This document shows, piece by piece, positions 2,571 through 32,823 of a DNA stretch of 32,823 nt. This DNA is from an uncultured Flammeovirgaceae bacterium (GTDB lineage: Bacteria > Bacteroidota > Bacteroidia > Cytophagales > Cyclobacteriaceae): the NCBI GenBank assembly GCA_913050055.1, contig CAJXAT010000017.1:1-32823 (forward strand), in the 5' to 3' direction. The position numbers were made by a program, and so were the translations under genes. Every line of letters begins with the position of its first letter. The first letter of the stretch is position 1. The notes below the pieces were generated by a model. That model was not told where the DNA came from, made no database searches, and saw only the letters and a list, made by a program, of their open reading frames with translations.

Positions 2571-5201
2571 ATGCTAAAAAACACATTTTCAATATTTGGA
2601 CTTTTGGTATTTTTCCTGTCCAATGCACAACCAGATGTTGTGGATAAGCAACGGTTTTCATTTGAGCCAGAGCTAGAAATCAATGAAAAAATACCCAGTC
2701 CGAAAACATATTTAAACTATGATTTAGGTGCTTCTTTTACGCTATATGCCGACGTAGAAGCTTACTTTAAGGCCCTTTCAGCCTCTTCTGGACGTGTTTT
2801 ATACCATGAGTATGGACAGACTTACGAGGGTCGACCTTTGATTAATTTAGTTATCTCCTCCGAAGAGAACATAAAAAACATAGATGAAATTAAATCAAAG
2901 CACATGCAATTCTTGCAAGGAGCTGAGGCGGACAAAGCAGTTTTGAAAGGTCAACCTACTTTTACTTCTTTTAGTTACAACATTCATGGTAATGAAGCAT
3001 CATCGACTGAAGCGGCGATGCAGGTAGCCTACCGCATGGCGGCAGCTCAAGACGATGAAACGGAGGTAGTACTCAAAAACTCAGTAATCATCATGTATAT
3101 CTGTATTAATCCTGATGGTCGTGATCGATACGTGTATTGGTATAAATCTATGAAAAGATTAAAAAGGCCAAGTAACGAGCCGCAGGACATCGAGCATATG
3201 GAAGGTTGGCCAGGTGGGAGAACTAATCATTATTGGTTTGATGTCAATAGAGATTGGGTCTGGCAAGTACACCCAGAGGCAAGGGGACTATCCGAAGAGT
3301 ATCAAAAATGGCTGCCACAAGTACATGTTGATTATCATGAGCAAGGTTATAATAACAATTATTTCACGGCACCCGGCACCACGCCGAGAAATCAATTGCT
3401 TCCAGATACTTATGAAGGATGGGCCAAAGTTTTTGGAGATGCAAACATCGCACAATTTGATAAGTATCAGATCAATTATTTTACAAGGGATCGGTTTGAT
3501 TTCTTTTATCCAGGATATGGTTCAAGTTATCCGAGTGTTATGGGCGCGATCGGGATGTTAACCGAACAGGGTGGTGGATCTGCAGGGGGGCGAATTGTAA
3601 AGACTGAAGACGGGGTGAATCTCACCCTTAGACAAAGGATATTTGATCACTACACGACCTCTGTTGCAACCATCAAAACCTCGGTTTTGCACCGTGAACG
3701 ATTGCTTGATTACAGCAAGAGAGCATTGAACCCCGACAATAGTAAATCTAAGATCAAAGCTTATTTTTTTAGTGATCATGAAGTTTACAGTAATGACCTG
3801 GTCAATATATTGATCCGAAATGGGATCAAAGTAGAACAGGCCCTTGATGATTTTCAGATCACAGCTGCCCAAGACTATCGTTCAGGACGCACCCTAAAAA
3901 AAAACTTTAATCAAGGGATTTATATTGTAACCACTCAACAGCCGAAACATTTGTTAATCAATACGATTATGGCCCGTAATTTGGAGATTGAAGATTCGGT
4001 GATGTATGATATGGCCACTTGGTCAGCTCCTTTGGCTTATAATTTAGATGCATATTCCACAACGGGAGGGTATACGGTCAAGACCAAACAGTTGAGTCAA
4101 GAAGTTGCGTTCAACGGATCAGTGATCAACAACGAGGCTCAATATGCTTACGTGATAGACTGGAGTCAGCGGAATGCGCCCCAAGCATTGGCACAGTTAT
4201 GGGCTAAAAAATACAATGTACGTTCTGCATTTGAACCTTTTTATGTAGGTGATCAATCATTTCCTGCAGGTACCCTTATTGTGCTGCGAGGTAGAAATTT
4301 GGAGCACAAAGATGTAATGAATCAGGAGATCAAAGCAATAGCTCAAAACCTAGGAGTTGAGATTATTGGATTGAACAGTGGTCGTGTGATGAAAGGCATG
4401 GATTTGGCCAATGGTAGAAATGTCCCCATTAAGCAACCGAAGGTGGCCTTACTGGTAGAACCTCCCTTTAGCACTTATACTGCTGGGCAAATTTATTTTT
4501 TATTTGATTGGCAAACGGGTCTGCCTATCGATCGCATTAAAGCGACGGCACTGCAGCAAAGCAGCAGCCCAAAATTTGGAGGTAGATCAAGAAGCGTTGA
4601 TTTGAAAGATTATGATGTGCTCATTTTACCTGATGGAGGAAATGGTTTACCTGAGCTGTTCAAAGAAGAAGCATTGGGCCAGATCAAGGATTGGGTAAAT
4701 GAAGGGGGAACGCTCATCGCCACAGAGGGAGCTGCATCATTTTTCACCAGGGAGTTGTCCGACTTCACGGAGATATTACTTAAAGAATATCCAAAAGATT
4801 CGAGTCTAATGGCACGATCGCTGCCCTATGATCAGCGAACCGCTTACGAAGGTAAAAAAAGGATACCTGGGACGGCTTTGAATGCTAAAATAGACATTAC
4901 CCATCCCCTTGCCTTTGGCCTTAAGGCCGAGCTCTATACTTTGAAATTTGGTACCGACGCATTGGTGCCAAATGTAGGATTGGAAACCGTAGGTAGTTAT
5001 GAGAAGTTGAATCAACTTAATGCAGCCGGTTATGCTTCCCCGGACAATCTCAGCCATTTGGCTGAGAATACTTTTGCTGGAGTGGTGAGTCTGGGTAGGG
5101 GAAAAGTGGTGTATTTGATTGATAATACACAATATCGTATGTTTTGGATGGGTCCTTCCAGAATGATGCAAAATGCAGTCATGCAAATACCCGGCTATTG
5201 A
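2571..5201 (+). CDS. Secreted M14-family zinc carboxypeptidase with C-terminal GATase-like domain
   Basis: An 876-residue exported metallopeptidase. The signal peptide is about residues 1-19, ending in SNAQ. The M14 domain (about 55-400) keeps the zinc and catalytic residues: the HxxE motif at H139/E142 in NIHGNEASS, the DVNRDW substrate-binding block (R227, equivalent to NR in classical carboxypeptidases), the third zinc ligand H256 in VDYHEQG, and the catalytic glutamate probably E332 in MLTEQGGGS. The region around 640-760, with YDVLILPDGGNGLPELF and GTLIATEGAASFF, resembles a class I glutamine amidotransferase-like fold, usual in this Bacteroidota subfamily. The residues suggest an active peptidase working outside the cytoplasm. 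The downstream sortilin-like gene starts 31 bases after the stop, so the two are probably one operon. Confidence 0.92.
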   Translation: MLKNTFSIFGLLVFFLSNAQPDVVDKQRFSFEPELEINEKIPSPKTYLNYDLGASFTLYADVEAYFKALSASSGRVLYHEYGQTYEGRPLINLVISSEENIKNIDEIKSKHMQFLQGAEADKAVLKGQPTFTSFSYNIHGNEASSTEAAMQVAYRMAAAQDDETEVVLKNSVIIMYICINPDGRDRYVYWYKSMKRLKRPSNEPQDIEHMEGWPGGRTNHYWFDVNRDWVWQVHPEARGLSEEYQKWLPQVHVDYHEQGYNNNYFTAPGTTPRNQLLPDTYEGWAKVFGDANIAQFDKYQINYFTRDRFDFFYPGYGSSYPSVMGAIGMLTEQGGGSAGGRIVKTEDGVNLTLRQRIFDHYTTSVATIKTSVLHRERLLDYSKRALNPDNSKSKIKAYFFSDHEVYSNDLVNILIRNGIKVEQALDDFQITAAQDYRSGRTLKKNFNQGIYIVTTQQPKHLLINTIMARNLEIEDSVMYDMATWSAPLAYNLDAYSTTGGYTVKTKQLSQEVAFNGSVINNEAQYAYVIDWSQRNAPQALAQLWAKKYNVRSAFEPFYVGDQSFPAGTLIVLRGRNLEHKDVMNQEIKAIAQNLGVEIIGLNSGRVMKGMDLANGRNVPIKQPKVALLVEPPFSTYTAGQIYFLFDWQTGLPIDRIKATALQQSSSPKFGGRSRSVDLKDYDVLILPDGGNGLPELFKEEALGQIKDWVNEGGTLIATEGAASFFTRELSDFTEILLKEYPKDSSLMARSLPYDQRTAYEGKKRIPGTALNAKIDITHPLAFGLKAELYTLKFGTDALVPNVGLETVGSYEKLNQLNAAGYASPDNLSHLAENTFAGVVSLGRGKVVYLIDNTQYRMFWMGPSRMMQNAVMQIPGY

Positions 5202-5231
5202 AACCATTTTTTAAAAAAAAGTAATATTACA

Positions 5232-8200
5232 ATGAACAACCTTCGATTAATTTTTTTAACGTGTCTTGTGCTGCCGCTCATGGTTTTTGCTCAAAAAAAT
5301 AAAAAAGCTTCTCAGGTTGCTGAAAGTCTTGTTGAGGCTGAATTATTTTCGGGTTTAAAATGGAGAAATATAGGTCCTTTTCGAGGAGGAAGGAGTGTCA
5401 CTTCTTCCGGCGTAGTTGGAGACCCCATGACTTATTACATGGGCAACACTGGAGGAGGGGTTTGGAAAACCTCTGATGCCGGCCAAACATGGAAGAATAT
5501 TTCGGACGGTTTTTTTGAATTGGGTTCTGTGGGAGCCATAGGTGTGTCAGAGTCAGATCCAAATGTGATTTATGTAGGCATGGGTGAGCACGCGGTCAGA
5601 GGAGTCATGACTTCTCATGGCAATGGCGTATACAAGTCTAACGATGCCGGGAAAAATTGGGATCATATGGGATTAGTGGGAACCATGACAATTTCAGATG
5701 TCATCATTCATCCTACCAATCCAGACATTGTATTCATTGCCGCGCAAGGGGCTCAGCATGGACCTACAAAGGAAAGGGGTATTTATAAATCCATAGATGG
5801 TGGGAAAAATTGGGTGAAAAAACTTTTTGTTGCTGAGGACGTTGGAGCGTCATCTCTGACTATGGATATGAATAATCCCCGCATACTCTATGCCAGTATG
5901 TGGCAGCATACGAGGTATCCTTGGACGATGAAATCGGGAGGTGCTGGATCCGGTTTGTATAAGTCGACAGATATGGGGGAGACTTGGGACCCCATGAGTG
6001 AAGGACTCCCAGAAGAATTTGGAAAATCAGGGATCTCTGTTTCAAGAGCCAATGGTAATCTGGTCTTTGCCATAATTGAAGCCAAGGGAACTAAAGGAGG
6101 GGTTTATCGATCGGACAATGCAGGTAAAAGCTGGAAACAAACCAGTACAGACCGGGTGACCATAGCAAGATCTTGGTATTATATGGAAATATTTGCAGAT
6201 CCTTCCAATGAGAACGTCGTTTATGTCTTGAACGCTCCCGTTCTCAAATCCATTGATAAAGGAAAGACATTTCAACAGATATCTGTTCCTCACGGAGATA
6301 ATCATCATTTATGGATCAACCCTATGGACTCTAAAAATATGATTAACTCCAATGATGGCGGGACCAATATTACCTTCAACGGAGGTGAGAGTTGGACGCG
6401 GCAAGACCAACAGCCCACCGCTCAATTCTATCGGGTCATTACGGACAATAAGGTACCCTATCATGTGTACGGTGGGCAACAAGATAATTCTGCTATTGGA
6501 ATTGCAAGTAGAACGAATGGTCGGGGAATCACATGGAAAGATTGGTATTCGGTTGCTGGATGTGAAAGCGCTTATTTGGCTTTTGATCCGGATGATCCCA
6601 AAACTATTTTTGGAGGCTGTTATCAAGGGATTATCGATCGTTGGTCAAGATCAACGGCGGTATCAAAATCAATAAAGGAATATCCAGAACTGAGCTTGGG
6701 GAATGTACCTAAAGATTTTAAATATAGGTTCAATTGGAACGCACCCATTATAAGTTCTCCCCATGATCGGTCGGTCATTTACCATGCAGGAAATGTAGTA
6801 TTTAAAACCCTTGATGGGGGTATTAATTGGGAGGTAATCAGTCCTGATTTAACAAGGAATGATAAAGCACATCAAGGGCCTGGTGGGGGTCCTTACACCA
6901 ATGAGGCTGCGGGTGGAGAAAATTACAATACAATTATGTATTTGACAGAATCACCACATGATAAAGGCGTTTTATGGGCAGGTTCTGATGATGGATTGGT
7001 TCATCTTACGCGTGACGGAGGTATGAATTGGGCGAATGTTACACCTAAAGACTTGCCCGAGGCTATTATAAATTCGATTGAGGTATCTCCCCATGATCCT
7101 GCAACAGCTTACATAACAGTTATGGCATATAAATTCAATAATTTGAAGCCAATGGTTTACAAAACTATGGATTATGGTGTGAGCTGGGTGAAACGGATTT
7201 CTGGCATTGATGACCAAATAATTGTAAGGGTAGTAAGGGAAGATAAGAAAGTAAAGGGATTACTTTATGCAGGAACCGAGGCAGGATTATATATCTCGTT
7301 CAATGGAGGCGTATTTTGGCAAAAAATACAGCTCAACTTACCCATTGTACCTATCAACGATTTGACCATCCAAGACAATGATTTGGTTGCAGCGACGGCG
7401 GGTCGGTCTTTTTGGATTTTAGATGATTTAGGAGCTTTTCAGGGCTCAAAAGGGAAGTTTGAACAGGAACTAATGCTATTTCAACCAAAAAAAACATATC
7501 GACTATTCGGAGGGTCGACAGATGAACCAAGACCCGGTCTAGGTCAAAACCCAAAATCAGGGGTTCTGATAGATTATTATCTTTCAGAAAAAAAGGACAG
7601 CGCTTTTTTGCGGTTAAAAGTGATCAATAGTGATGGAAAAACGATAAGAAGTCTTTCAAATGAGCGCACAGACACATTCGAAAGTTGGCCTGGAGGACCG
7701 AAAAAGCCTGTATTATTAACTGCCGATCGGGGTATAAATAGAGTTGTATGGGACTTCACAAGGACACCGCTTCCATCCATTGATAAAGTCTTTGTTTATG
7801 GAAATTATTCTGGCGGTCATGTAGCTCCCGGAACCTATACCTTGAGATTGATATTGGATCAAGATTCGGTAGAGACCACCGTTGAAATATTGGCAGATCC
7901 GCGAGTTCAAGCCACCCTCAATGATTATGTTTCACAACAAGAGATGATGATTTCAATTGAACAGGCCATCAAAGAGATCCATGAAGCGGTCAATGACATG
8001 CGTTCAGTGAAATCTCAAATCGAGCATTATCAGTCGATGTTTGAGGAAAGCGCCGTCGCCCCAGAAATTATCGAATTGGGAAGAGACATTATCGCTCAGA
8101 TTGGGGCATGGGAAGTTGCATTGATCCAATCGGATCAAAAGACGTTCCAAGATGTTATTAATTTTCACAATCAGTTAAATGCGCAATGGATGAATTTGAA

Positions 8201-17328: not shown

Positions 17329-18483
17329 TCAATTTATGAGTGGACTCACCCTATGAGGATAGTCTCTTTGGCGGCATTGAAATTTAAGAATGGCTTCTTT
17401 GACTACACTGCCTTGCTCTACATTAATGGCATTTTTGATGGTCAGACTTTGGTCCCAATTTGATCGACCTCTAAAGACAGAGGGTAAATGTACAATCAAT
17501 GCTGCAGAAAGGGATCGGGAAGCACTTTCCCAAAAATAACTGGGGGTGTGGTCTACGGCATAATAATCAATATGATCGATTTCCAGTATGGGTTTGTTAA
17601 AAGTAGTGGGTTGGGCAAAATAAAATCCCATGCCTTCATCGCAACTCACATCAATGATCAATGTGCCTGCCCTCAGACTAGATTTTTCCTCCTCAATGAC
17701 AAAATTAACAGGATCATTAGTGTCTTGCTAGGTACCGTTAATGATGATTTCCGATTTGCTGATTAAATCCAATAAGGGTCACTCGGTTCCATCATGTTCT
17801 ACAATTTTTAATCTAGGTTCATTAAGAGCTCCATTCTTGATACGGACATAGTTTACACCTAAGACCTCTTCTCGGACTTCATGATCAGCTCGCTGGATAC
17901 AAATGGTAATATTTCTAAAGCCATGGGCTTTTAATGCATAAATGGCACCTCTACTGACGGCACCAAAACTAAATATGATTACTTTTCGCTGATTGCCATA
18001 ATGTACATCTTTCCCTTTCAGTTGTAAGGCATGAATGACCGCACAATAACCAGCCATTTCATTGTTCTTATAGAACGTATGTCTTCCGATCTGTTTATTG
18101 GTACTCCAAACAAACATATCTTCAAATGCGATGAGAGTGAGCTTTCGATCTATGGCTGCTTGTGTGACTTGCATTTGTTGTGCGCAATGGTGATAACCCT
18201 AAAGTATGCCCCCTTCTCTTAATTCATTGAAATCTGATAATATCGGTTTGGCGATGATCGCCTTTCCTATATCTGATAATATCTCTGACCTTGTAACCAT
18301 TCTTCCCGTTTGCTTTGCAATTTCATCATCTTCAATATGGAAGGGTTTGCTATATCCTTTTTCAAAAATGAGCTTTTTGCGGATATGTTTAGGAAGTCTA
18401 CGTAAATGCTCAGGATGAATAGGTACGTGTCTTTCATCTTCTTTTTTGGAAGTTCCAATAATACCTATCTTTGATAAATCCAT
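17329..18483 (-). pseudogene. Carboxyethylornithine-synthase-like (alanine dehydrogenase/PNT family) gene with three in-frame stops
   Basis: One unbroken frame of 385 codons runs from ATG 18483 to TGA 17329, interrupted by TAG (18199-18201), TGA (17779-17781) and TAG (17728-17730), with no frameshift. It covers the whole family: N-terminal SKKEDERHVPIHPEHLRRLP and the KLIFEKGYSKPF region, then ITLIAFEDMF-like and NEMAGYCAVIHALQLKGKD, the nucleotide-binding segment IIFSFGAVSRGAIYALKAHG, IIDVSCDEGMGFYFAQ, and YYAVDHTPSYFWESAS. Enzymes annotated this way join pyruvate with an amino acid (ornithine or lysine) reductively; substrate choice here is not provable. The first stop stands where relatives carry Trp (ILWGW), the second where Arg or Trp is usual, so single changes explain them. 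The well-kept sequence between the stops means recent inactivation. Confidence 0.85.
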
Positions 18484-22921: not shown

Positions 22922-24256
22922 ATGGATGAAAAGCGGATTAAAAAATTGCTCAGTCTATCAACAAGAGGACATCATTTGGCAACTACACTGAGTCGGATAG
23001 ACCATGCTTTATTCATTGAGGCGAAACAAAACCTTTATGATCCTGAAGATAATCCGTCAGGCTCATTTCCGTTGAATGTAGCCGAAAATCAAGTGATGGT
23101 ACCCGTCATAAAGGCGAAATTGATGACCCTTCTCAAAAACAATGAGATGCCGGATTGGGTTATGGGTTATACGCATTATTTGGGGCATCCTGAGGTAAGA
23201 ATGATGATTGCACGATTTATGGAGCAACACTTATGCGATTGCACCATTCATCCTGATACCTTGGGGCTATCCGCCGGGGCAACAGCCATTGTGGAGGTGA
23301 CTGCTTTTTTATTGGCCAATCCAGGAGATATAGTGGTCATCCCAGCACCTGGTTATCCAATGTATACCAATGATTTTGGTATCAAGGCGGGGATCAGCCG
23401 CTATGATCTTCAAACCCATGATAACCTGCAAGAAATAGGCACAAAGGCACCCGCAACGACTGATTTATTGGAGCGTGCTTGGGCAATATTGAAGGCCGAA
23501 GGTCGGTGCTTTAAAATATTATTGATTTCTTCACCTGATAATCCAAAGGGCTGCAGGTATAGGGAAGATCAATTGCGTGCGCTGGCACGTTGGTGTATCG
23601 AGCATCAGGTGCATATGATTGTCAATGAAATCTATGGACTTTCATTGATTGATACGACTCCTATTGACCATACATTGAGTGCGCATGGTCAAGATGAATA
23701 TGTATCTTTTGCCAAAATAATGGAAGAATTTGCCTCGGACTACCTACATCTCTGATATGCATTTTCCAAAGATTTTGGAATGTCAGGGCTTCGTTGTGGG
23801 GTAGTACATTCATTAAACAAGGGCTTCATAGCCGGGCTCGAAAACATCAATGTGCCACACATGGTATCAAATATGTCTCAATGGATGATCGAAGAAATGC
23901 TCAGTGATGATGAATTTATAAAAAACTATATTGAGCAGAATAAAAAGTAGATTACCCGAAGTTATCAATGGGTAGTAGTTGCTTTGAAATTATTAGATGT
24001 CCCCTTCATTACGATTAGAGGGGGGATATTTGTCTGGATCGACCTTTCTAGTTACTTGGATGCAGATAAAGATGAGGCTGAAATAGTACTTTGGATGAAT
24101 ATCTATAAACAAACGGGTGTACTTTTGACCCCAGGCCTAGAATTTAAGCATTCTAAAAAAGGACTTTTTAGGATGGTTTATACTGCAGTTTCTTTTGATT
24201 ATTTGAAGGTAGCTGTGGAGCGGTTGTCAGCTTATTTAGGGCAGTTTAAAAAATAA
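22922..24256 (+). pseudogene. PLP aminotransferase (ACC-synthase-like, class I/II) with two in-frame stops
   Basis: A single frame of 445 codons from ATG 22922 to TAA 24256 is interrupted by TGA at 23753-23755 and TAG at 23948-23950, without any frameshift. It encodes a fold-type I aminotransferase resembling 1-aminocyclopropane-1-carboxylate synthases: PLNVAENQVM (about 50-59), MGYTHYLGHPEVR, LGLSAGATAIVEVTAFLLAN, PAPGYPMYTNDF, LLISSPDNPKGCRY and IVNEIYGLSL. After the first stop come YAFSKDFGMSGLRCGVVHS with the PLP-binding lysine and, after the second stop, FITIRGGIFVWIDLSSYL and LLTPGLEFKHSKKGLFRMVY. The truncated product would lack the PLP lysine and be inactive. The TGA stands where Trp or a similar residue is plausible. 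Residues between and after the stops are well kept, so loss is recent. The original substrate cannot be told. Confidence 0.87.
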
Positions 24257-24398
24257 GATAAGGGCTTATTTTTTTAGGAAGTAGTGATAGAAAATTATGT
24301 TTAAATTACTCTAGTTTGAATGATTAAAATGAGTGGTTCATGGGTTGATTTTTATACTCGTCAGAACCCTTTCAATTTATAATTTATAAAATTTAGCT

Positions 24399-26813
24399 AT
24401 GAAAAAAATCATATTTAGTTTGATGTTCATTGGAGTGTTGAAAACCTTAGGACAAGAATCTCTCAATTATCAAATACCATCAAAAGAAATTTATGATCTT
24501 GTTGACGTCTCCTTGGCGCCTTCCGTTGTGATGGATGATGCTAAAGATTTCATGATCTTTTTGTATCGAGACACCTATAAAAGTATCGAAGATTTATCGA
24601 GTGAAGAACTGAGATTAGCAGGATTAAGAATTGACCCTAAGACCAATATTGGGAGTAGGATTACCTATTATAATAATCTTAAAATACAAGATTTAAGGAA
24701 TGATCCAGTGAGATTGATTCAGGTCATAGGTCTGCCGAAGAAACCCAAACTGACCAATATAAAATTTTCACCAGATCAAAGTAAAATCGCTATGACCCAT
24801 ACTACTTCCCAGGGAGTAGAAGTCTGGTATGTTGACCTCTCAACCTTTTTAGCTAAGAGGCTTACAGAAGCTAATGCCAATGCCAATTTAGGACAAGTCA
24901 TTCACTGGTTCAAAGACAGTGAGAGGTTATTGGTCAAAATGATTCCTAAAGATAGAGCAGCATTGATCAACCCTAAGTTTGCCATTCCTTCTGGACCTAC
25001 TGTTTCAGTTAGTGATGGCCAAGAAGCACCAAACAGAACCTATCAAGATTTGTTGAAAAATAAAAACGATGAACATAATTTTGAACAATTGGCGCTCTCA
25101 GTGCTGCATAAAGTGTCTTTGAAAGGGTCTTCGTTACCATGGCTTGCAAGCGCTATGTATCAGGACATAAGTTTTTCACCCGATGGTGAATACATCATGA
25201 TTTCTGCTATTAAAAGACCATTTTCTTATTTAGTTCCTAACAGTAGATTTCCCTCTATGCGTATCATTTATACAAAAGAAGGAGAATTGGTGAGTACCGT
25301 AGCGGAGACACCTTTGATGGAAAATTTACCCAAGGGCTTCATGGCTGTACCCTCGGGAAAGAGGAGTTTTAGATGGAGAAATGATCAATCGGCCAGTTTA
25401 GTTTTTGTGAAAGCACTTGATGGGGGTAATCCTGATAGTCTCGTGGCGTTTCGAGATGAAGTTTTTCAGTTAGAAGCACCGTTCGATGAAAGGCCTAGGA
25501 GTATGTTAAAGACTCAAAACAGATTTTCTAGCATTATATGGGGAAATAAAAATTTGGCCATAGCTTATGATTACTGGTGGAATACACGAAATAAAAAAAC
25601 CTATTTATTTAACCCTGCGCTTCCAGATGACGGGGTTGATCTGCTTTTTGACCAAAATTATCAGGATGTATACAATGATCCAGGGAGCTTTATTACGAGA
25701 AAAAATAAACTAGGTCGGAAAGTTTTAGCCCTGAAAGGGAGTCGAGCTTATTTAAAAGGTGATGGCTTTTCTGACGAGGGCCAATTCCCTTTTTTAGATG
25801 AAATAAATCTTAAATCAAAAATAAAAAATAGACTGTATCAATCTGACTATAAAAATAAATTTGAACGATTCATTGATTATGATATTGTGAAAAATCAACT
25901 TTTAGTGCGTTTAGAATCACCCAACGACTATCCCAATTATTTTATTAGAAATTTTGATCAAGGCGATCTTAAACAAATGACCCAATTTGAAAATCCATTT
26001 CTCAGTATAAAGGATATTCATAAAGAAGTGATCTCATATAAGAGAGCCGATGGATTAGAGTTATCAGCTACATTATATCTACCGGTGGGCTACGACAAGG
26101 CGAAAAAAGAAAAAATGCCCATGATACTTTGGGCCTACCCAAGAGAATTCAAAGACCCATCAAGTGCTGCACAAAAAACGAGTAATCCCAATACCTTTAC
26201 ATTTCCCTATTATGGTTCACCGATTTATTGGGTGACCAAAGGATATGTGATTTTGGATAGGGCTTCTTTTCCTATTTTAGGAGTGGGGGACACCGAGCCC
26301 AACGATACATTCATCAACCAATTGGTAAGTAATGCCCAAGCCGCTATAGATGCTGCTGACTTACTGGGCTATATCGATAGAAATCGTGTTGCGGTTGGGG
26401 GGCACAGTTACGGAGCCTTTATGGTCGCTAATTTACTTTCCCATTCTGACCTATTTGCTGCCGGAATCGCTAGAAGTGGAGCTTATAACCGAACATTGAC
26501 GCCTTTTGGCTTTCAAAGTGAGCAACGTAGTTATTGGGAAGCACCTGAAATTTATTACGATATGTCACCTTTTATGCATGCGGATAAAATGAAAACACCC
26601 TTATTGTTGACACATGGTGAGGCAGACAATAATTCGGGCACTTATCCTATGCAAAGTATTAGATATTTCAATGCCCTTAAAGGGCTGGGTGCAGAAGTTC
26701 GTTTGGTCCTTCTGCCCAAGGAAAGTCATGGATACCGTGCTAAAGAGAATATTCTCCATTTGCTTTGGGAACAAGATCAATGGTTGGAAAAATACGTCAA
26801 GAACAAAGATTAG
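24399..26813 (+). CDS. Secreted S9 prolyl-oligopeptidase-family peptidase, glutamyl endopeptidase-like (S9D)
   Basis: An 804-residue exported serine peptidase. The signal peptide is about 1-19 (MKKIIFSLMFIGVLKTLGQ). The N-terminal beta-propeller-like part (about 40-530) includes FSPDQSKIAMTHTTSQGVEV and ISFSPDGEYIMISAIKRPFS. The C-terminal alpha/beta-hydrolase domain (about 540-804) has the nucleophile elbow VGGHSYGAFM with S670, then SGAYNRTLTPFGFQSEQRSY, D743 in THGEADNNSG and H777 in KESHGYRAKE, completing the triad. The elbow and the SGAYNRTLTPFGFQ block closely match the plant chloroplast glutamyl endopeptidase group, so cleavage after Glu is a reasonable but unproven inference. Length is normal and no lesion is seen. 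It is a single-gene unit between two decayed loci. Confidence 0.92.
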   Translation: MKKIIFSLMFIGVLKTLGQESLNYQIPSKEIYDLVDVSLAPSVVMDDAKDFMIFLYRDTYKSIEDLSSEELRLAGLRIDPKTNIGSRITYYNNLKIQDLRNDPVRLIQVIGLPKKPKLTNIKFSPDQSKIAMTHTTSQGVEVWYVDLSTFLAKRLTEANANANLGQVIHWFKDSERLLVKMIPKDRAALINPKFAIPSGPTVSVSDGQEAPNRTYQDLLKNKNDEHNFEQLALSVLHKVSLKGSSLPWLASAMYQDISFSPDGEYIMISAIKRPFSYLVPNSRFPSMRIIYTKEGELVSTVAETPLMENLPKGFMAVPSGKRSFRWRNDQSASLVFVKALDGGNPDSLVAFRDEVFQLEAPFDERPRSMLKTQNRFSSIIWGNKNLAIAYDYWWNTRNKKTYLFNPALPDDGVDLLFDQNYQDVYNDPGSFITRKNKLGRKVLALKGSRAYLKGDGFSDEGQFPFLDEINLKSKIKNRLYQSDYKNKFERFIDYDIVKNQLLVRLESPNDYPNYFIRNFDQGDLKQMTQFENPFLSIKDIHKEVISYKRADGLELSATLYLPVGYDKAKKEKMPMILWAYPREFKDPSSAAQKTSNPNTFTFPYYGSPIYWVTKGYVILDRASFPILGVGDTEPNDTFINQLVSNAQAAIDAADLLGYIDRNRVAVGGHSYGAFMVANLLSHSDLFAAGIARSGAYNRTLTPFGFQSEQRSYWEAPEIYYDMSPFMHADKMKTPLLLTHGEADNNSGTYPMQSIRYFNALKGLGAEVRLVLLPKESHGYRAKENILHLLWEQDQWLEKYVKNKD

Positions 26814-26885
26814 TACTTAGCTTTAGATTGAAGAGAATATGAATATGAAATGATGTTATTTAACTAATTGGGTTTTAAGATGTAA

Positions 26886-27170
26886 TTAATCATTTTTTGG
26901 CCTTATCTCCTCAAGAATGCGTAATGATATTTGAATATTTTCAGCTATTTTTTCATAGGCGAAAGTACCATCTTTATTTTTTGTGAAGAGCTTTGAACCC
27001 ATTCCTACGCAATAAGCACCTGCCTCAAACCATTCTTTGAGATTAGATTGGGAAGGTTCAATACCGCCTGTTGGCATGATGTTTGACCATGGTATAGGAC
27101 CTTTTATAGCTTTGATGAAAGCAGGTCTGCCAACTTGAGCACCAGGGAATATTTTAACTATGTCTGATCC
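26886..27170 (-). pseudogene. Truncated KDPG-type aldolase, C-terminal third only
   Basis: The minus strand encodes the last 94 or so residues of a 2-dehydro-3-deoxyphosphogluconate/4-hydroxy-2-oxoglutarate aldolase: GSDIVKIFPGAQVGRPAF with the Schiff-base lysine, SNIMPTGGIEPSQSNLKEWF, and AGAYCVGMGSKLF, ending at the natural stop at 26886. The family is normally around 210-220 residues; about 120 N-terminal residues, including other active-site positions, are absent. The open frame continues to 27281, but that part is antisense to the bisphosphatase gene and has no aldolase similarity. The homology ends exactly where the opposite-strand fbp gene begins, indicating a rearrangement joint. It has no promoter or start of its own, and the fragment must be inactive. 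Confidence 0.85.
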
Positions 27171-28166
27171 AAATAAAACCCTTGGAGAATTCATTATTGA
27201 AAACCAAAGCGCTTTCAAATATTCCTCTGGAGAGTTATCAAGATTGATTAATGCCATAACTTTAGCTGCAAAGGTGGTCAATCATGAAGTAAACAAAGCG
27301 GGCTTGGTAGATATTTTAGGAGACATAAACCATATCAATACCCAAGGGGAGGAGCAGCAAAAGCTTGACATTTACGCACATAAAATATTTTTACAAACTT
27401 TAACAAATAGGAATATTGTTTGTGGCATTGCCAGTGAAGAAGAAGAGCATTTCATCCGAGTAAATAGTATGGATAAAAAAATCAAAACAAACATGTTGTT
27501 TTGATTGATCCCCTTGATGGTTTTTGTAATATTGATGTGAACGTCTCTGTAGGGACAATCTTTTCAATTTACCGACGTATGACTGCTTTGGGAACCTCTG
27601 TCATTACAGCAGACTTTTTGCAAGCAGGAGATCAGCAGGTGGCGGCGGGATATGTGATCTATGGTACCTCAACCATGTTGGTTTATACTACTGGAAATGG
27701 AGTGAATGGCTTTACCTTAAATCCAGCGTTAGGCACATTTTATTTTTCGCATCCCAATAAGATTTATCCGAAAAATGGATCTATTTATTCTATCAATGAA
27801 GGAAATTATATTCATTTTCCATTGGGTGTAAAAAATTATATTAAGTACTGTCAAATGGAATCAGGAGATCGTCCTTATACCTCGAGATACATTGGTTCTC
27901 TGGTATCAGATTACCATCGTAATATGATTAAGGGAGGTATTTATTTGTATCCGGAAACGGCTAAGAATCCGAGTGGAAAACTTCGTTTACTTTATGAATG
28001 TAATCTGATGGCTTTTATTGCGGAGCAGGCAGGAGGGAAAGCCATTAATGGAGAAAAGCGAATTATGAGTATAAAACCAATATCATTACATCAGCGGGTC
28101 GCTTTTTATTGTGGGAGCCGTAAAATGGTAGAGGAATTGGCAGATTTCATTTTAAAAAATCCTTAA
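27160..28166 (+). pseudogene. fbp: Class I fructose-1,6-bisphosphatase gene with a one-base deletion
   Basis: Two frames together encode a complete class I FBPase, the gluconeogenic enzyme that hydrolyses fructose 1,6-bisphosphate. Frame one (from ATG 27160) has TLGEFIIENQSAFKYSSGEL, LVDILGDINHINTQGEEQQK and GIASEEEEHFIRV with the metal-binding glutamates. Frame two has [67 protein letters not shown] and [20 protein letters not shown]. The switch lies at the run of seven A residues at 27475-27481; eight would restore a 335-residue protein of normal length. Other changes hint at relaxed constraint: the active-site DPLDGSSN of relatives is DPLDGFCN here, and YECNPMAF is YECNLMAF. The start codon abuts the aldolase fragment, so no native promoter is left upstream. 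A sequencing error alone would not explain the substitutions. Confidence 0.88.
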
Positions 28167-28261
28167 TGAGTGATTTTTAAAACCTTTGGCAGAAATAAAA
28201 AGCCTAAACGGTCCTTACGGCATACTAATCCATAAATATTTCAAATCAATGACGATACCGA

Positions 28262-30379
28262 TTAATGAAAAGTACTCCCATCTTTAGCCATTTTAATCAA
28301 AGTCTTGGCAGGAGCGAAGCGTTCACCATAGGTGCTTCTGAAGTCTTCCATACGCGCTACAACAGGAGCCATGCCCCAGGTATCTAATGCTCGAAAGGGT
28401 CCTCCTGTAAAAGGCAAAAATCCAATGCCAAATACAGCACCTAAATCGCCATCTGTGGGATTCGCAATGATCCCTTCTTCTAAGCAAAGTACGGCCTCAT
28501 TTAACATAAGGAAGACCGCCCGATCTTGAATGTCTACTATAGGCAGGGATTGATTCCCTTTTCCTTTAAAGAAGTCGTAGGCAGTTTCATCGACTCCTGT
28601 CTTTTTTCCTTTGACATCATAGCAAAAAAATCCTTTCTTATTTTTACGGCCTTTTCTACCTGCTGTATTCATTTCAATAACCGCTTCAGAAACTTCAAAA
28701 CCTACTCTTCCAGCTACATTTTTCTTCGAACTTTCCGTAACATGTGCAGCAATATCTAAACCCACTTCATCGAGTAGCGAAATGGGGCCAACGGGGAATC
28801 CTTTTTTCTTTAATGATCGATCTACCATTTCGATTTCCAGACCCTCGTCTAACATGAGGAGGCATTCGTTAGTATAGGGTGCCAATATTCGGTTGACATA
28901 AAATCCAGAACCATCCTTGACCACAATACAGGTTTTCCCTTGTTGAATGCCCATATCATAGCAAGAGGCAATGACCCAATCTGCGGTTGTCTCCGTTTTG
29001 ACAATTTCCAATAGGGGCATTTTAGGCACAGGTGAAAAATAATGCATGCCAATCACTTGTGCAGGTTTTTTTGCATATTGGGACATTTCAGTGACAGAGA
29101 GCGAAGAGGTATTGGAGGCGATGATTACATCTTCTTTGCAATGTTTTTGAATATCTTCAATGACTTGCTTCTTGACATCCATCCGTTCAAGTACTGCTTC
29201 GATGACTACATCAACTTTATCAAAGTTGTCATAAGTTAATTGTCCCTGGACCAGACCTATTTGTTGTTCGGCTTGGAGTTTAGTGATGCTTTTAAAACCC
29301 AACTTTTTACTGATGCTTTTCCAAATCTGGCGAGAGGCATTGCTCAGCATATCGGCATTGATATCTTTGAGCAAGACATCAATTCCTCGCGTGGCACTGA
29401 TTTCAGCAATACCAGCACCCATGAAACCAGCACCTATCATCCCTAATTTCTTCAGGGGTTTAGCACCCGTGTAAGGATTTTTTTTATTGTTGGACATACC
29501 AAAAAAGAGGGCACGTAAAGCCGCGCTTTCAGGAGTCAACATTAAACGTTCAAATCCTTCGAGTTCTTTTTCATATCCAGCCTTGAGCCCTTTTTTATAA
29601 CTTGTTTCTACGCAATCTATAATGGCAGGAATAGCAGGATAATTTCCTTGAGACTGCTTTAAGGCCATTTTTCGCGCCTGCTTGAATAATAGACCTCTTC
29701 CTAGGGCACTTTCCAATAGTTTGGAACTTAATGGTAGTTTGGATTTACGTACGATAGGTTGCTGGATGAGTTTTTTTGCCATCACCAAGGCGGCTTGAAG
29801 TAGCTTGCCCTCATCAGTGATCTCATCAATTAGACCTATTTTTTTAGCTCTGAAAGCATTCAAAGTTTTGCCAGTCAGCATCATGTCTAATGCTTTTTGA
29901 ATACCTATCAGGCGGGGCAAGCGCTGGGTACCACCACCACCCGGGAGTAGTCCTATTTGGACTTCAGGTAAGCCCATTTTAGTATGCGTAGCAAGAGTAG
30001 CAATCCGTCCTTGACAAGCCAGGGCGATTTCGGTACCTAAACCGACACAAGCCCCATTAATGGCAGCGATAAAAGGCTTTTTCGAATGTTCAATACGGTT
30101 TAATGAGGCATGACCTTTGGCTTGAAAAGGTCTGAAATCTCCTTCTTTTTCAATTTGAAAAGATTTAATATCAGCCCCTGCCATAAAATCTTTTTTGCCA
30201 CTGATAAAGATGACGGCGTGTATTTGATCATCTTCGATCAGTTGATTCCCCAAGATTTCAAAAATGCCAATGACATCTGGAGAAACAACATTCATTTTTT
30301 CATGTTGATGATCGAGGGTACATACCGCGATGTTTTCTTGAACGTCAACGGTAACAAAATCTTCTAACTTCATAGTCAT
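28262..30379 (-). CDS. fadJ: Fatty acid oxidation multifunctional protein (enoyl-CoA hydratase / 3-hydroxyacyl-CoA dehydrogenase)
   Basis: A 705-residue bifunctional enzyme for two steps of beta-oxidation. The N-terminal crotonase domain (about 8-190) has the oxyanion-hole segment [10 protein letters not shown], the catalytic pair E117 in [10 protein letters not shown] and E139 in [16 protein letters not shown]. The NAD-binding domain begins at [18 protein letters not shown], with GxGxxG at 316-321. The 3-hydroxyacyl-CoA dehydrogenase base is H446 in [19 protein letters not shown]. Two C-terminal 3HCDH dimerisation modules follow, including [14 protein letters not shown]. Length agrees with the FadB/FadJ alpha-subunit. 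The start is ATG 30379, with a second ATG at 30373. The thiolase gene ends 27 bases upstream, so the two form the alpha/beta complex in one operon. The FadJ rather than FadB name rests on pairing with the FadI-type thiolase. Confidence 0.93.
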
Positions 30380-30406
30380 GATATTTTTAATGAGAACGTT
30401 TGAAAT

Positions 30407-31696
30407 TTATGATAAGGTTTTTATGAGCATGGCATGACCATGAGCACCGGCAGCGCAAGCCGCTAGGAGGCCATAAGTTCCTTTTTCATGTTTTAACCTA
30501 TTACATGTGGTCGTTAATAATCTAGCGCCTGTAGCACCAAAAGGATGTCCAATGGATAGCGAACCTCCCCATAGGTTGAACTTTTCCATGGGGACTTCAC
30601 CCAAAGCTTTTTTTAGTCCAAGTTCATTAACGGCAAAATCCTCAGACGCTAAAGCCTTTAAATTAGATAATATTTGACCGGCAAAAGCTTCATGAAATTC
30701 GATCACATCTAGGTCGTTAAAGGTCATTTTTTGACGGTCCAATAATTTTGAAACCGCATAAGCGGGTCCCAAAAGGAGTTCGTCCTCTAAACGTTGTCCT
30801 GTAAATACATAATCCACCACTTCTGCTTTTGGAATAAATCCTAAGGCTTTGGCCTTTTCCTCCGACATTAAGAGTACGGCGCTGGCACCATCTGTGAGAA
30901 ATGAAGAATTTGCCGCAGTGAGTGTTCCGAATTTTTTATCGAAAGCAGGACGTAAACGAGCCAATTTTTCAATTTTACTATCTGCTCTTATTCCATTATC
31001 GGTCTGAATCTCTTTGAATTTTGGTGGAAGCTTTACGCTTACCATTTCCTCAGTCAAAAATCCTTTTTCTTGGGCTTGAGCAGCCATTTGATGGGATCTT
31101 ACTGCATAAGCATCTTGCTCGGCTCTTGGAATTTCAAACCTTGCTGCCATGATATCACAATCGGCACCCATGGCTTTGTTGGTGGTATATTCAGCTATGG
31201 CTGGTCTTTCAGGTATAAAGTCTGAGAAACGCAGGCCGGTTAGAAATTTGAGACCATCGCCCAATCCTTTGAGTTTTTGAGTAAGGAATAATTTTTTACG
31301 CATTTTCCTCGGGAACTGTATGGGCGCATCCGAGGTATGATCAATACCTCCTGCAATCATAATATTCGCTTGCCCGGTCATGATTTCTTGACAGGCGTCT
31401 GCAATCGCTCTATTGGCAGAAATACAGGCTTGAGAAACGGTTCTACAAGGCACTTTTTGGGGTATTCCAGCTACCAATGCAGCTTCTCTAGCGACATTGG
31501 GAGTTTTTACATTGGCAATGACATTACCTAAAACAACTCCGTCTATTAATTGAGGATCGATGCCTGTTTTTTTCAATAAACCCTTGATGGCAAAACCACC
31601 CAATTGATAGGAGAGTAAATCCATATAATCAGTCCCTGAACGGAGAAAGGGTGTTCGGCAACCTTCGATAATAACTACCTTTTGCAGTGGATTCAT
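30407..31696 (-). CDS. fadI: Acetyl-CoA C-acyltransferase (3-ketoacyl-CoA thiolase)
   Basis: A 429-residue thiolase, beta-subunit of the fatty acid oxidation complex, cleaving 3-ketoacyl-CoA to acetyl-CoA and a shortened acyl-CoA. The nucleophilic cysteine is C91 in TVSQACISANRA. The other active-site groups are H335 in EFHEAFAGQ, H384 in SIGHPFGATGAR and C414 in AACAAGAHGHAM. Length and motifs match the longer FadI/HADHB type rather than short biosynthetic thiolases. It begins 49 bases after the acyl-CoA dehydrogenase gene (minus strand) and is followed by fadJ, giving the order dehydrogenase, thiolase, hydratase/dehydrogenase. The protein looks intact, with no lesions. Confidence 0.94.
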   Translation of the reverse strand: MNPLQKVVIIEGCRTPFLRSGTDYMDLLSYQLGGFAIKGLLKKTGIDPQLIDGVVLGNVIANVKTPNVAREAALVAGIPQKVPCRTVSQACISANRAIADACQEIMTGQANIMIAGGIDHTSDAPIQFPRKMRKKLFLTQKLKGLGDGLKFLTGLRFSDFIPERPAIAEYTTNKAMGADCDIMAARFEIPRAEQDAYAVRSHQMAAQAQEKGFLTEEMVSVKLPPKFKEIQTDNGIRADSKIEKLARLRPAFDKKFGTLTAANSSFLTDGASAVLLMSEEKAKALGFIPKAEVVDYVFTGQRLEDELLLGPAYAVSKLLDRQKMTFNDLDVIEFHEAFAGQILSNLKALASEDFAVNELGLKKALGEVPMEKFNLWGGSLSIGHPFGATGARLLTTTCNRLKHEKGTYGLLAACAAGAHGHAMLIKTLS

Positions 31697-31744
31697 GACG
31701 CTAATTTTTTAATTAATTTAAAATAATTCAACTTTTTAAACATA

Positions 31745-32823
31745 TCAGAAGGGATATTTTCTTTGCATTAAAGCATGATCGGTAATTTCTCTACTTAAAG
31801 CTTTTGGATTCTGTAGATAGGGTGGCAGAAGTTTGTCCGCAAAGTAGTTCAAGATACGCTTTTCAAATCCTGAAGCAAAGCTGTCGATGGCTTCTTTGGC
31901 TTCATTTTGTACTTTATTCAGTGATTTATAGAGATAGAGTTGAGCTATTTTTTCTTGAACAGATAAATCAGTAATGTTCTGATTAGCCGAAGCCAACTTT
32001 CGAACTTTTAAATAGACGCTTTCAGCCATATAAGCTTCTGCTAATATCGAAGCGAGGTTTAGGATAATTTCCTGTTCTTTGATTAGGTCTTGTTTTAGCT
32101 TTTTACCAGCAGCCCCTAAGATTAGTAAAAACGTATTTTTTATACCTTTGATCAATCTTTGTTCCCGTTTCCAACGGCCACTCTTGCCCCAACGGAAATG
32201 TTCAGAAAGAACCATGAAGGGTATTTTTTTACCCGCACCATTGAGATCAAGTTCTTTTGTTTTTAATCCTTTTTTAATCAGTTCGGCGACCGAAAGCATA
32301 CCATTGATGTCATTGGTACCCTCGTATATTTTAGTGATTCTAGAATCTCTGTAAGCCATTTCTAAACCTAACTCTGCCGCGTAACCCATTCCACCATGTA
32401 TTTGAATTGCGTCTGTTGTGATTTTCATAGCAGCTTCACTTGCAAATAATTTTGCCATAGCAGCCTCTTTAATAATATCCTGTCCATTATCTTTTTTCCA
32501 CGCTGCATGAAAAGTTAACAATTTTGCAGCTTCAATTTGAGTGGCCATATCTGAAAGTTTAAATCCAATAGATTGAAATTTGTTAATTTCTTTACCAAAG
32601 GCTATACGTTCAGTAGAATATTTTAATGCACGATCATATGCTCCCTGAGCAGTCCCTACCGCTAACGCTGCTATTGAAATCCTACCCCCAGTTAATATTT
32701 TGAGAAATATTTTAAAACCCTCCCCTGGTGTAGCAATCATACTTGATTGATCTATAACCATATTATTGAAAAATAATTGTCTTGTGTCACTTGCCTTCCA
32801 ACCCATCTTCTTTTCTGGTTCAG
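31745..32823 (-). CDS. Acyl-CoA dehydrogenase, 5' end outside window
   Basis: The minus-strand frame runs off the right edge without a start; the residues before the ATG at 32806 read EPEKK and join MGWKASDT, a conserved acyl-CoA dehydrogenase stretch, so the ATG at 32806 is internal. The visible 359 residues include GEGFKIFLKILTGGRISIAA, ALKYSTERIAFGKEINKF (about 79-96 of the visible part) and the C-terminal signature QIHGGMGYAAELGLEMAYRD, then ITKIYEGTNDI with the catalytic-base glutamate. A helical extension of about 150 residues follows, as in the long (around 600-residue) Bacteroidota type related to very-long-chain dehydrogenases. It catalyses the FAD-dependent first step of beta-oxidation. 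It is the upstream gene of the visible operon with fadI and fadJ. Confidence 0.92.
   Translation of the reverse strand, partial: EPEKKMGWKASDTRQLFFNNMVIDQSSMIATPGEGFKIFLKILTGGRISIAALAVGTAQGAYDRALKYSTERIAFGKEINKFQSIGFKLSDMATQIEAAKLLTFHAAWKKDNGQDIIKEAAMAKLFASEAAMKITTDAIQIHGGMGYAAELGLEMAYRDSRITKIYEGTNDINGMLSVAELIKKGLKTKELDLNGAGKKIPFMVLSEHFRWGKSGRWKREQRLIKGIKNTFLLILGAAGKKLKQDLIKEQEIILNLASILAEAYMAESVYLKVRKLASANQNITDLSVQEKIAQLYLYKSLNKVQNEAKEAIDSFASGFEKRILNYFADKLLPPYLQNPKALSREITDHALMQRKYPF

What the first reader, a model, noticed from the sequence alone, without database searches (positions are those of the whole stretch)
26886..27175. Rearrangement joint: aldolase homology ends exactly at the fbp start codon
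The bases 27160-27170 are read both as the start of fbp (MSDP) on the plus strand and as aldolase GSDI on the minus strand. The two homologies meet without a spacer, which fits an end-joining event at a short shared sequence. It removed the aldolase N-terminus and the fbp promoter together.
Basis: partly seen in the sequence, partly recalled or inferred. Interest (0 to 1): 0.5.

Follow-up and report, generated by a model that had tools for sequence, protein, structure and literature searches.

The report
Deletion scar fusing two decaying genes
In a bacterium of a marine group a deletion cut off the front part of a sugar-acid aldolase gene and joined the rest, backwards, to the first codons of a decaying fructose-bisphosphatase gene; it is an ordinary scar of gene loss, though the same spot looks broken in different ways in sister lineages.

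Summary
The joint is in the sequence. Window 26886-27173 (minus strand) is the 3' part of a KDPG/KHG aldolase gene (eda; 131 of 226 residues missing), and fbp begins beside it with no spacer. Sister MAGs show what happened. One version of the locus in G004 has, behind the same S9 peptidase, an intact 226-aa eda followed by a sugar-kinase remnant. G008 and the other G004 version have fbp with its own start (M/I-S-R-P-S-K-T) after a short spacer. Base by base, aldolase sequence runs to 27173 and fbp sequence starts at 27175. The apparent fbp start "MSDPN" is therefore mostly antisense aldolase, and the joint lies in codon 5, not at the start codon. The parents share no exact word longer than 4 bp there in register, so an assembly chimera is unlikely, though no reads were available. 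fbp is a frameshifted pseudogene here; fbp and eda are unfound or broken in most of the genus. G004 has a different joint at this place, and others probably lost the genes separately. I tested whether the joint is the edge of a recombined tract: it is not; against G008 the tract starts about 0.5 kb upstream. Best reading: an illegitimate-recombination deletion in a decaying locus. Real, ordinary, low interest.

The parts
26847..27173 (-). 3' part of eda (KDPG/KHG aldolase; coding 26886-27173) with its 3' flank; 5' part missing
   Evidence: PF01081/NF005499 matches start at profile position 120/132; 94% DNA identity to the stretch that holds an intact 226-aa eda in G004 version B
27174..27174 (.). 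deletion joint: last base that only the aldolase explains is 27173, first base from which only fbp explains the sequence is 27175
   Evidence: base-by-base comparison with G004B eda and G004A/G008 fbp
27160..27174 (+). apparent first five fbp codons ATG TCT GAT CCA AAT (MSDPN), supplied by the antisense strand of eda
   Evidence: native start in G004A is ATG TCA CGC CCC AGT (MSRPS); eda in G004B reads ATT TCT GAA CCC AAT at these bases
27175..28166 (+). fbp (class 1 fructose-bisphosphatase) pseudogene from codon 6 on; frameshift at A-run 27475-27481; DPLDGFCN at 27522-27527 where G004A reads GSSN
24399..26813 (+). intact S9 peptidase, left landmark of the locus; change in relatedness (homologous-recombination crossover) inside at 26649-26717
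26667..31958 (.). low-divergence tract shared with G008 (3% against 11% to the left and 9% to the right); the joint lies inside it
   Evidence: change-point analysis against G008; sliding identity

Best explanation
A deletion by illegitimate recombination in a locus that is being lost. The inferred ancestral order is S9 peptidase > < eda < kdgK-like kinase ... > fbp > < hadhA. In this lineage one event joined the middle of eda to fbp codon 5, removing the eda 5' part, the kinase and the fbp upstream region with its first codons. The antisense strand of eda happened to offer an in-frame ATG (or near-ATG) at the same distance as the lost one. The fbp then, or already before, lost its frame at an A-run, so the joint most likely makes no working product. 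The piece lies within a tract of about 5.3 kb that was exchanged by homologous recombination with a G008-like lineage, so the deletion may have arisen there and been imported, or have happened afterwards. Shown: both parental arrangements in relatives, the joint at base level, the frameshift, the tract edges against G008. Inferred: that kinase and native fbp start were there before the event in this lineage, the order of events, the enzymology.
For: Full eda at the same place in G004 version B, one alignment of 94% DNA identity from 24286 to 27174. Native fbp start in G004A and G008 after a short spacer, without eda. Switch at 27173/27175. An eda-kinase pair is also common further out: of 22 aldolase loci from other genera of the family and order (L023-L045 without L040), 14 show a match to the kinase within the fetched flanks, some of them weak. 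Weaker constraint: eda fragment dN/dS 0.71 (14 differences only) and fbp 0.25-0.50 for pairs with the window, beside 0.08-0.14 for peptidase and hadhA in pairs with the window. Other states at the place: G004B joins a 5'-truncated kinase to fbp from about codon 60; G008/G004A lack eda and kinase; in G001 neither gene was found, the matched blocks of peptidase and hadhA lying 133 bp apart. FBPase was found in 4 of 10 genomes of the genus, glpX in 0 of 10; PF01081 in 3 of 10, of which one is this fragment.
Against: No second genome was seen with this joint: of the 10 genomes of the genus only G000 and G004 match the eda region, and G004 has another joint; in G006 the contig ends inside fbp (at window 27241), so its 5' side cannot be seen. 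No reads were at hand. The full ancestral order with whole kinase and whole fbp was seen in no genome. Base 27162 (G of the ATG) agrees with fbp of G004A and not with eda of G004B, and 27168 and 27171 agree with neither, so the exact cut rests on single bases. fbp dN/dS against G004A is 0.25, not that of a long-dead gene. The other end of the same contig (32407-32823) looks like a chimera, which shows that the contig is not beyond doubt.
Confidence: 0.75

Rival explanations
1. Homology-facilitated illegitimate recombination: incoming fbp-hadhA DNA recombined by homology on the right and was joined to resident eda at a few similar bases on the left, so that the joint is the edge of the imported tract.
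For: Window and G008 differ by 11% left and 3% right of the region; dS 0.49 in peptidase against 0.07 in hadhA. Imperfect in-register similarity of eda and fbp at the joint, 12 of 20, reached at 1 of 1082 positions of the eda-kinase stretch, the joint itself. The mechanism is documented in transformable bacteria (passages of PMC6382021; abstract of PMC3240628). G004A against G008 does have its tract edge at the fbp start (736-789, ATG at 770).
Against: In the window the left edge of the tract is at 26649-26717, about 0.5 kb before the joint: 26667-26846 is 96.7% identical to G008 and 88.9% to G004B, whereas 26300-26666 is 84.5% and 94.8%. The joint lies inside the tract.
Confidence: 0.12
2. 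Assembly chimera of two strains or alleles in the metagenome.
For: G000 has 209 contigs and 85% completeness. Contigs end inside this locus in G003, G004 and G006, and G004 probably has strain alleles there. The right end of this contig looks chimeric.
Against: The longest exact in-register word shared by the two parents at the joint is 4 bp, far below any assembler word. The left junction peptidase-eda is found independently in G004, the right flank fbp-hadhA in G004, G006 and G008.
Confidence: 0.1
3. The window state is ancestral or functional: eda antisense and fbp overlap on purpose (shared regulation), and relatives inserted sequence.
For: The frame from the captured ATG into fbp is open for 114 codons.
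Against: Intact eda in the same context in G004B, native fbp start in two relatives, fbp frameshifted in the window. The promoter scan of 26780-27300 found 0 sites, but it is of the sigma-70 consensus type, which I recall does not fit Bacteroidota, so this counts little.
Confidence: 0.03

Closest known systems
Small variable segments ascribed to illegitimate recombination in bacterial species (PMC2884548, passages read)
   Same: [quoted passage not shown] that paper also considers fragile sites as hot spots.
   Different: Described there for E. coli, S. aureus and Streptococcus pyogenes; here between lineages of a marine genus and between two versions within one MAG, at decaying genes.
Homology-facilitated illegitimate recombination (PMC6382021 passages, PMC3240628 abstract and outline)
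   Same: A recombined tract with a nearby joint of little homology.
   Different: The tract edge in the window does not coincide with the joint.
Gene decay and gene loss by deletion in marine bacteria (general knowledge, no paper read)
   Same: Truncations, frameshifts and absence of the same metabolic genes in sister lineages.
   Different: Nothing in kind.

Membership tests
Deletion joint by illegitimate recombination | two sequences that lie apart in a relative are adjacent, with material between them missing | tested here: met
   G004B has the eda 5' part and a kinase remnant where the window has none; fbp from codon 6 as in G004A/G008
Deletion joint by illegitimate recombination | little or no homology at the joint | tested here: met
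   longest exact in-register word 4 bp; imperfect 12 of 20
Deletion joint by illegitimate recombination | no transposase or integrase gene at the joint | tested here: met
   ORFs of at least 80 aa from 24286 to the contig end are peptidase, eda, fbp, hadhA, thiolase, acyl-CoA dehydrogenase and two short antisense frames (the names of hadhA, thiolase and acyl-CoA dehydrogenase are read from the sequence, not from a family search); small insertion-element relics were not searched for
Ku/LigD end joining | host encodes Ku and LigD | not tested
   no search was made
Homology-facilitated illegitimate recombination | joint coincides with one edge of an imported homologous tract | tested here: not met
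   left edge 26649-26717 against G008, joint 27174
Functional eda (KDPG/KHG aldolase) | complete domain with N-terminal part | tested here: not met
   only profile positions 120-183 of 196 or 132-221 of 223
Functional class 1 FBPase | one open frame over the whole enzyme with the DPLDGSSN motif (motif recalled; present as DPLDGSSN in G004A by its DNA) | tested here: not met
   frame broken at 27475-27481; motif reads DPLDGFCN

The most novel reading that the evidence does not exclude
The interval between the peptidase and hadhA is a deletion hot spot of this genus: three to four different deletions ended in or beside the first third of fbp in sister lineages, and two deletion versions coexist in one population, so that the same genes are being lost repeatedly in parallel at one fragile site while flanking genes are exchanged between lineages.
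Probability: 0.35. Interest if true: 0.4.

Novelty: new member of a known kind. Interest (0 to 1): 0.2.

Why it matters
On its own it is one more scar of gene loss. Its use is as a worked case: a locus where parallel deletions, frameshift decay and gene exchange between sister lineages of a marine genus can be read side by side, and where an apparently normal gene start (MSDP) turns out to be borrowed antisense sequence of a neighbour, a trap for automatic annotation of start sites.

Tried and rejected
Homology-facilitated illegitimate recombination at the joint looked attractive from the jump in divergence, but the change-point test against G008 put the tract edge about 0.5 kb upstream. The idea that G004 carries a tandem duplication of the locus was set aside: among the listed matches, 8 pairs of G004 contig ends overlap end to end (4 at 97-99%, this locus included; the others at 100, 100, 99.7 and 88.6%; one of the four, C5-C7, has a second piece at 79.7%), which fits strain versions of single loci better; duplication is not excluded. 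Whether the A-type spacer keeps a relic of eda: the G008 spacer matches eda over 19 bases (2 of 500 and 4 of 500 shuffles reach the score), the G004A spacer does not clearly (82 of 500 and 31 of 500); left open. The G001 spacer shows no eda remnant (60 of 300 shuffles) and a weak match to the fbp 3' flank (13 of 300 and 9 of 300). A DNA search for another copy of the region in G000 found only the window itself.

Change-point of window against G006 gave a different picture (24709 and 25454), because the fetched G006 contigs leave 25480-27241 uncovered; window against G004A gave 29086 and 31131. These two do not support a tract edge at 26666 by themselves; the claim rests on G008 and on the identities. 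The mismatch lists for the first 60 bases of fbp were computed one base out of register and were not used.

Literature: six searches of the paper library were made and four papers were looked into: PMC8254474, PMC6382021 and PMC2884548 by passages, PMC3240628 by abstract and outline. The search for 'UBA4465' found 2 papers, seen as listing only. I make no claim that this locus is absent from print.

Full report
WHAT IS THERE. Behind an intact S9 peptidase (24399-26813) the minus strand carries 26886-27281 as an open frame whose part from residue 37 on matches KDPG/KHG aldolase (PF01081 positions 120-183 of 196; NF005499 positions 132-221 of 223). The plus strand carries class 1 fructose-bisphosphatase from 27160, in two frames: 27160-27504 and 27501-28166.

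WHERE IT COMES FROM. The window is contig C17 of a genome of 209 contigs, 2.77 Mb, 85% complete. The Fram Strait study used Illumina data assembled with MEGAHIT and PacBio HiFi data assembled with metaFlye (PMC8254474, passages read); which of them gave bin121 I did not establish.

WHAT RELATIVES SHOW. G004 has two versions of the locus. Version B (C11, locus L047): peptidase, then an intact 226-aa aldolase on the minus strand (4539-5219; NF005499 346.7 bits against a cut-off of 275), then a remnant of a sugar kinase (5364-5681; NF041633 positions 428-512 of 580, no Pfam match), then fbp from about codon 60 with stops, then the contig end. The window is 94% identical to it from 24286 to 27174 in one alignment, and again from 27337 to 28204. 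Version A (C12) and G008 have peptidase, a short spacer and fbp, with no aldolase. In G001 the matched blocks of peptidase and hadhA are 133 bp apart with neither gene. The kinase beside eda is common further out: of 22 aldolase loci from other genera (L023-L045 without L040 of G007), 14 show a match in the fetched flanks, several of them weak. In the genus, PF01081 was found in 3 of 10 genomes: complete in G004, distant in G007 (35% identical), and this fragment. PF00316 was found in 4 of 10, without interruption over the domain only in G008, which reads ATA where G004A has ATG; glpX in 0 of 10; PFK in 7 of 10.

THE JOINT BASE BY BASE. Laid against eda of G004B and fbp of G004A and G008 over 27150-27185, the window agrees with eda alone at 27152-27155, 27157, 27165-27167 and 27173, and with fbp alone at 27175-27178 and 27180-27185. 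Exceptions: 27162 agrees with fbp of G004A (the G of ATG) and not with eda; 27168 and 27171 agree with neither. So the cut is at 27174, inside codon 5 of the apparent fbp, and the codons ATG TCT GAT CCA AAT come from the antisense of aldolase codons. The native start is ATG TCA CGC CCC AGT in G004A, and G008 reads ATA TCA CGC CCC AGT. Of the 19 aldolase motifs printed (window and G004B included), 14 carry E at this place and 5 carry D; the window is one of the five (GAC), and the antisense of that codon supplies the G of ATG. Eda and fbp match at 12 of 20 bases in register at the joint, which only the joint itself among 1082 positions of the eda-kinase stretch reaches; over sampled pairs of positions 203 of 103,872 reach it. 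The longest exact in-register word is 4 bp.

IS IT AN ASSEMBLY ERROR? A word-based assembler would not join two sequences over 4 shared bases, and each flank is seen independently in other genomes. No reads were available, and no second genome shows the joint; in G006 the contig ends inside fbp, so it cannot be judged there. A caution comes from the other end of the contig: from 32407 to 32823 the acyl-CoA dehydrogenase continues as a different protein, at most 50% identical to other matches in the genus and spliced at the conserved IHGGMGYA motif, as an assembly chimera at a contig end would.

DECAY. By a simple Nei-Gojobori count dN/dS is 0.71 for the eda fragment against G004B (4 synonymous, 10 nonsynonymous, few data), 0.25, 0.37, 0.40 and 0.50 for fbp of the window against four others, 0.24-1.04 among the other fbp copies, and 0.03-0.14 for peptidase and hadhA. 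fbp in G004A has an extra base as well. So both genes at the joint look less constrained than their neighbours, fbp not by a wide margin in every pair.

RECOMBINATION AROUND IT. Window and G008 differ by 11% up to the 3' end of the peptidase, by 3% from 26666 (2-lnL range 26649-26717) to 31958 (31930-31987), and by 9% beyond (lnL gain 96). Between 26300 and 26666 the window is 94.8% identical to G004B and 84.5% to G008; between 26667 and 26846 it is 88.9% and 96.7%. Elsewhere G000 and G008 are 89%, 91.9% and 95.4% identical, so the genomes are mosaics in general. G004A against G008 shows a similar jump with its left edge at the fbp start (773, range 736-789, ATG at 770). Since the joint is inside the window's tract and not at its edge, it is not explained as the illegitimate end of the import; it was imported with the tract or arose later.

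MECHANISM. Most likely a deletion by illegitimate recombination (polymerase slippage or repair of a broken end at weakly similar sequence) from mid-eda to fbp codon 5. It took with it the eda 5' part and whatever lay between, by analogy with G004B at least a kinase, and the native fbp upstream region. The size of the deletion is unknown because no genome with the whole order was found. The captured ATG is in phase with fbp, but the frameshift 0.3 kb downstream makes a product unlikely.

COMPARED WITH WHAT IS KNOWN. Short variable segments with unlike joints, ascribed to illegitimate recombination, are described as a major type of diversity in E. coli, S. aureus and Streptococcus pyogenes (PMC2884548, passages read). 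This is one of that kind. What is slightly unusual is the crowding: two certain joints (window, G004B), a third probable (A type of G008 and G004A) and perhaps a fourth (G001) between the same two flanking genes in one genus, with two versions in one MAG. In G004, 8 pairs of contig ends overlap, 4 of them at 97-99% including this one, as expected of strain versions. With four informative genomes this is a hint of a hot spot, not proof: repeated loss of genes no longer needed gives the same picture.

VERDICT. Observation confirmed with a correction of the exact point; interpretation partly supported; ordinary gene decay; interest 0.2.

Noticed in passing
window 32407-32823: The acyl-CoA dehydrogenase at the contig end switches at the conserved IHGGMGYA motif to a protein at most 50% identical to other matches in the genus; G008, G006, G004 and G001 continue differently. 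Probably an assembly chimera at the contig end, or a horizontal exchange.
   Followed up: partly
window 24263-24286: Relatives G003 and G004 carry about 1.9 kb here before the peptidase, and G008 has the same stretch beside its peptidase; in G004 and G008 it holds a 472-aa protein that looks like L-serine dehydratase (name from sequence, no family search). The window and G006 have 22-23 bp instead.
   Followed up: partly
window 22922-24256: An aminotransferase is split into two frames (22922-23755 and 23984-24256), another likely pseudogene next to the locus.
   Followed up: no
L048 (G004 C12) and L049 (G008): G004 version A and G008 differ by 13.5% in the peptidase and by 2.1% from the fbp start codon on for about 3.9 kb, so the same stretch from fbp on is of low divergence in several lineages, as if it had spread recently.
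   Followed up: partly
genus-wide: Neither class 1 (PF00316) nor glpX-type (PF03320) FBPase was found in 6 of 10 genomes of the genus, among them G003 (98% complete) and G007 (99%); whether gluconeogenesis is absent or served by another enzyme is open.
   Followed up: partly
window 17779-18483: Two frames (17779-18174 and 18199-18483, minus strand) look by eye like pieces of one dehydrogenase gene, a further possible pseudogene; no family search was made.
   Followed up: no
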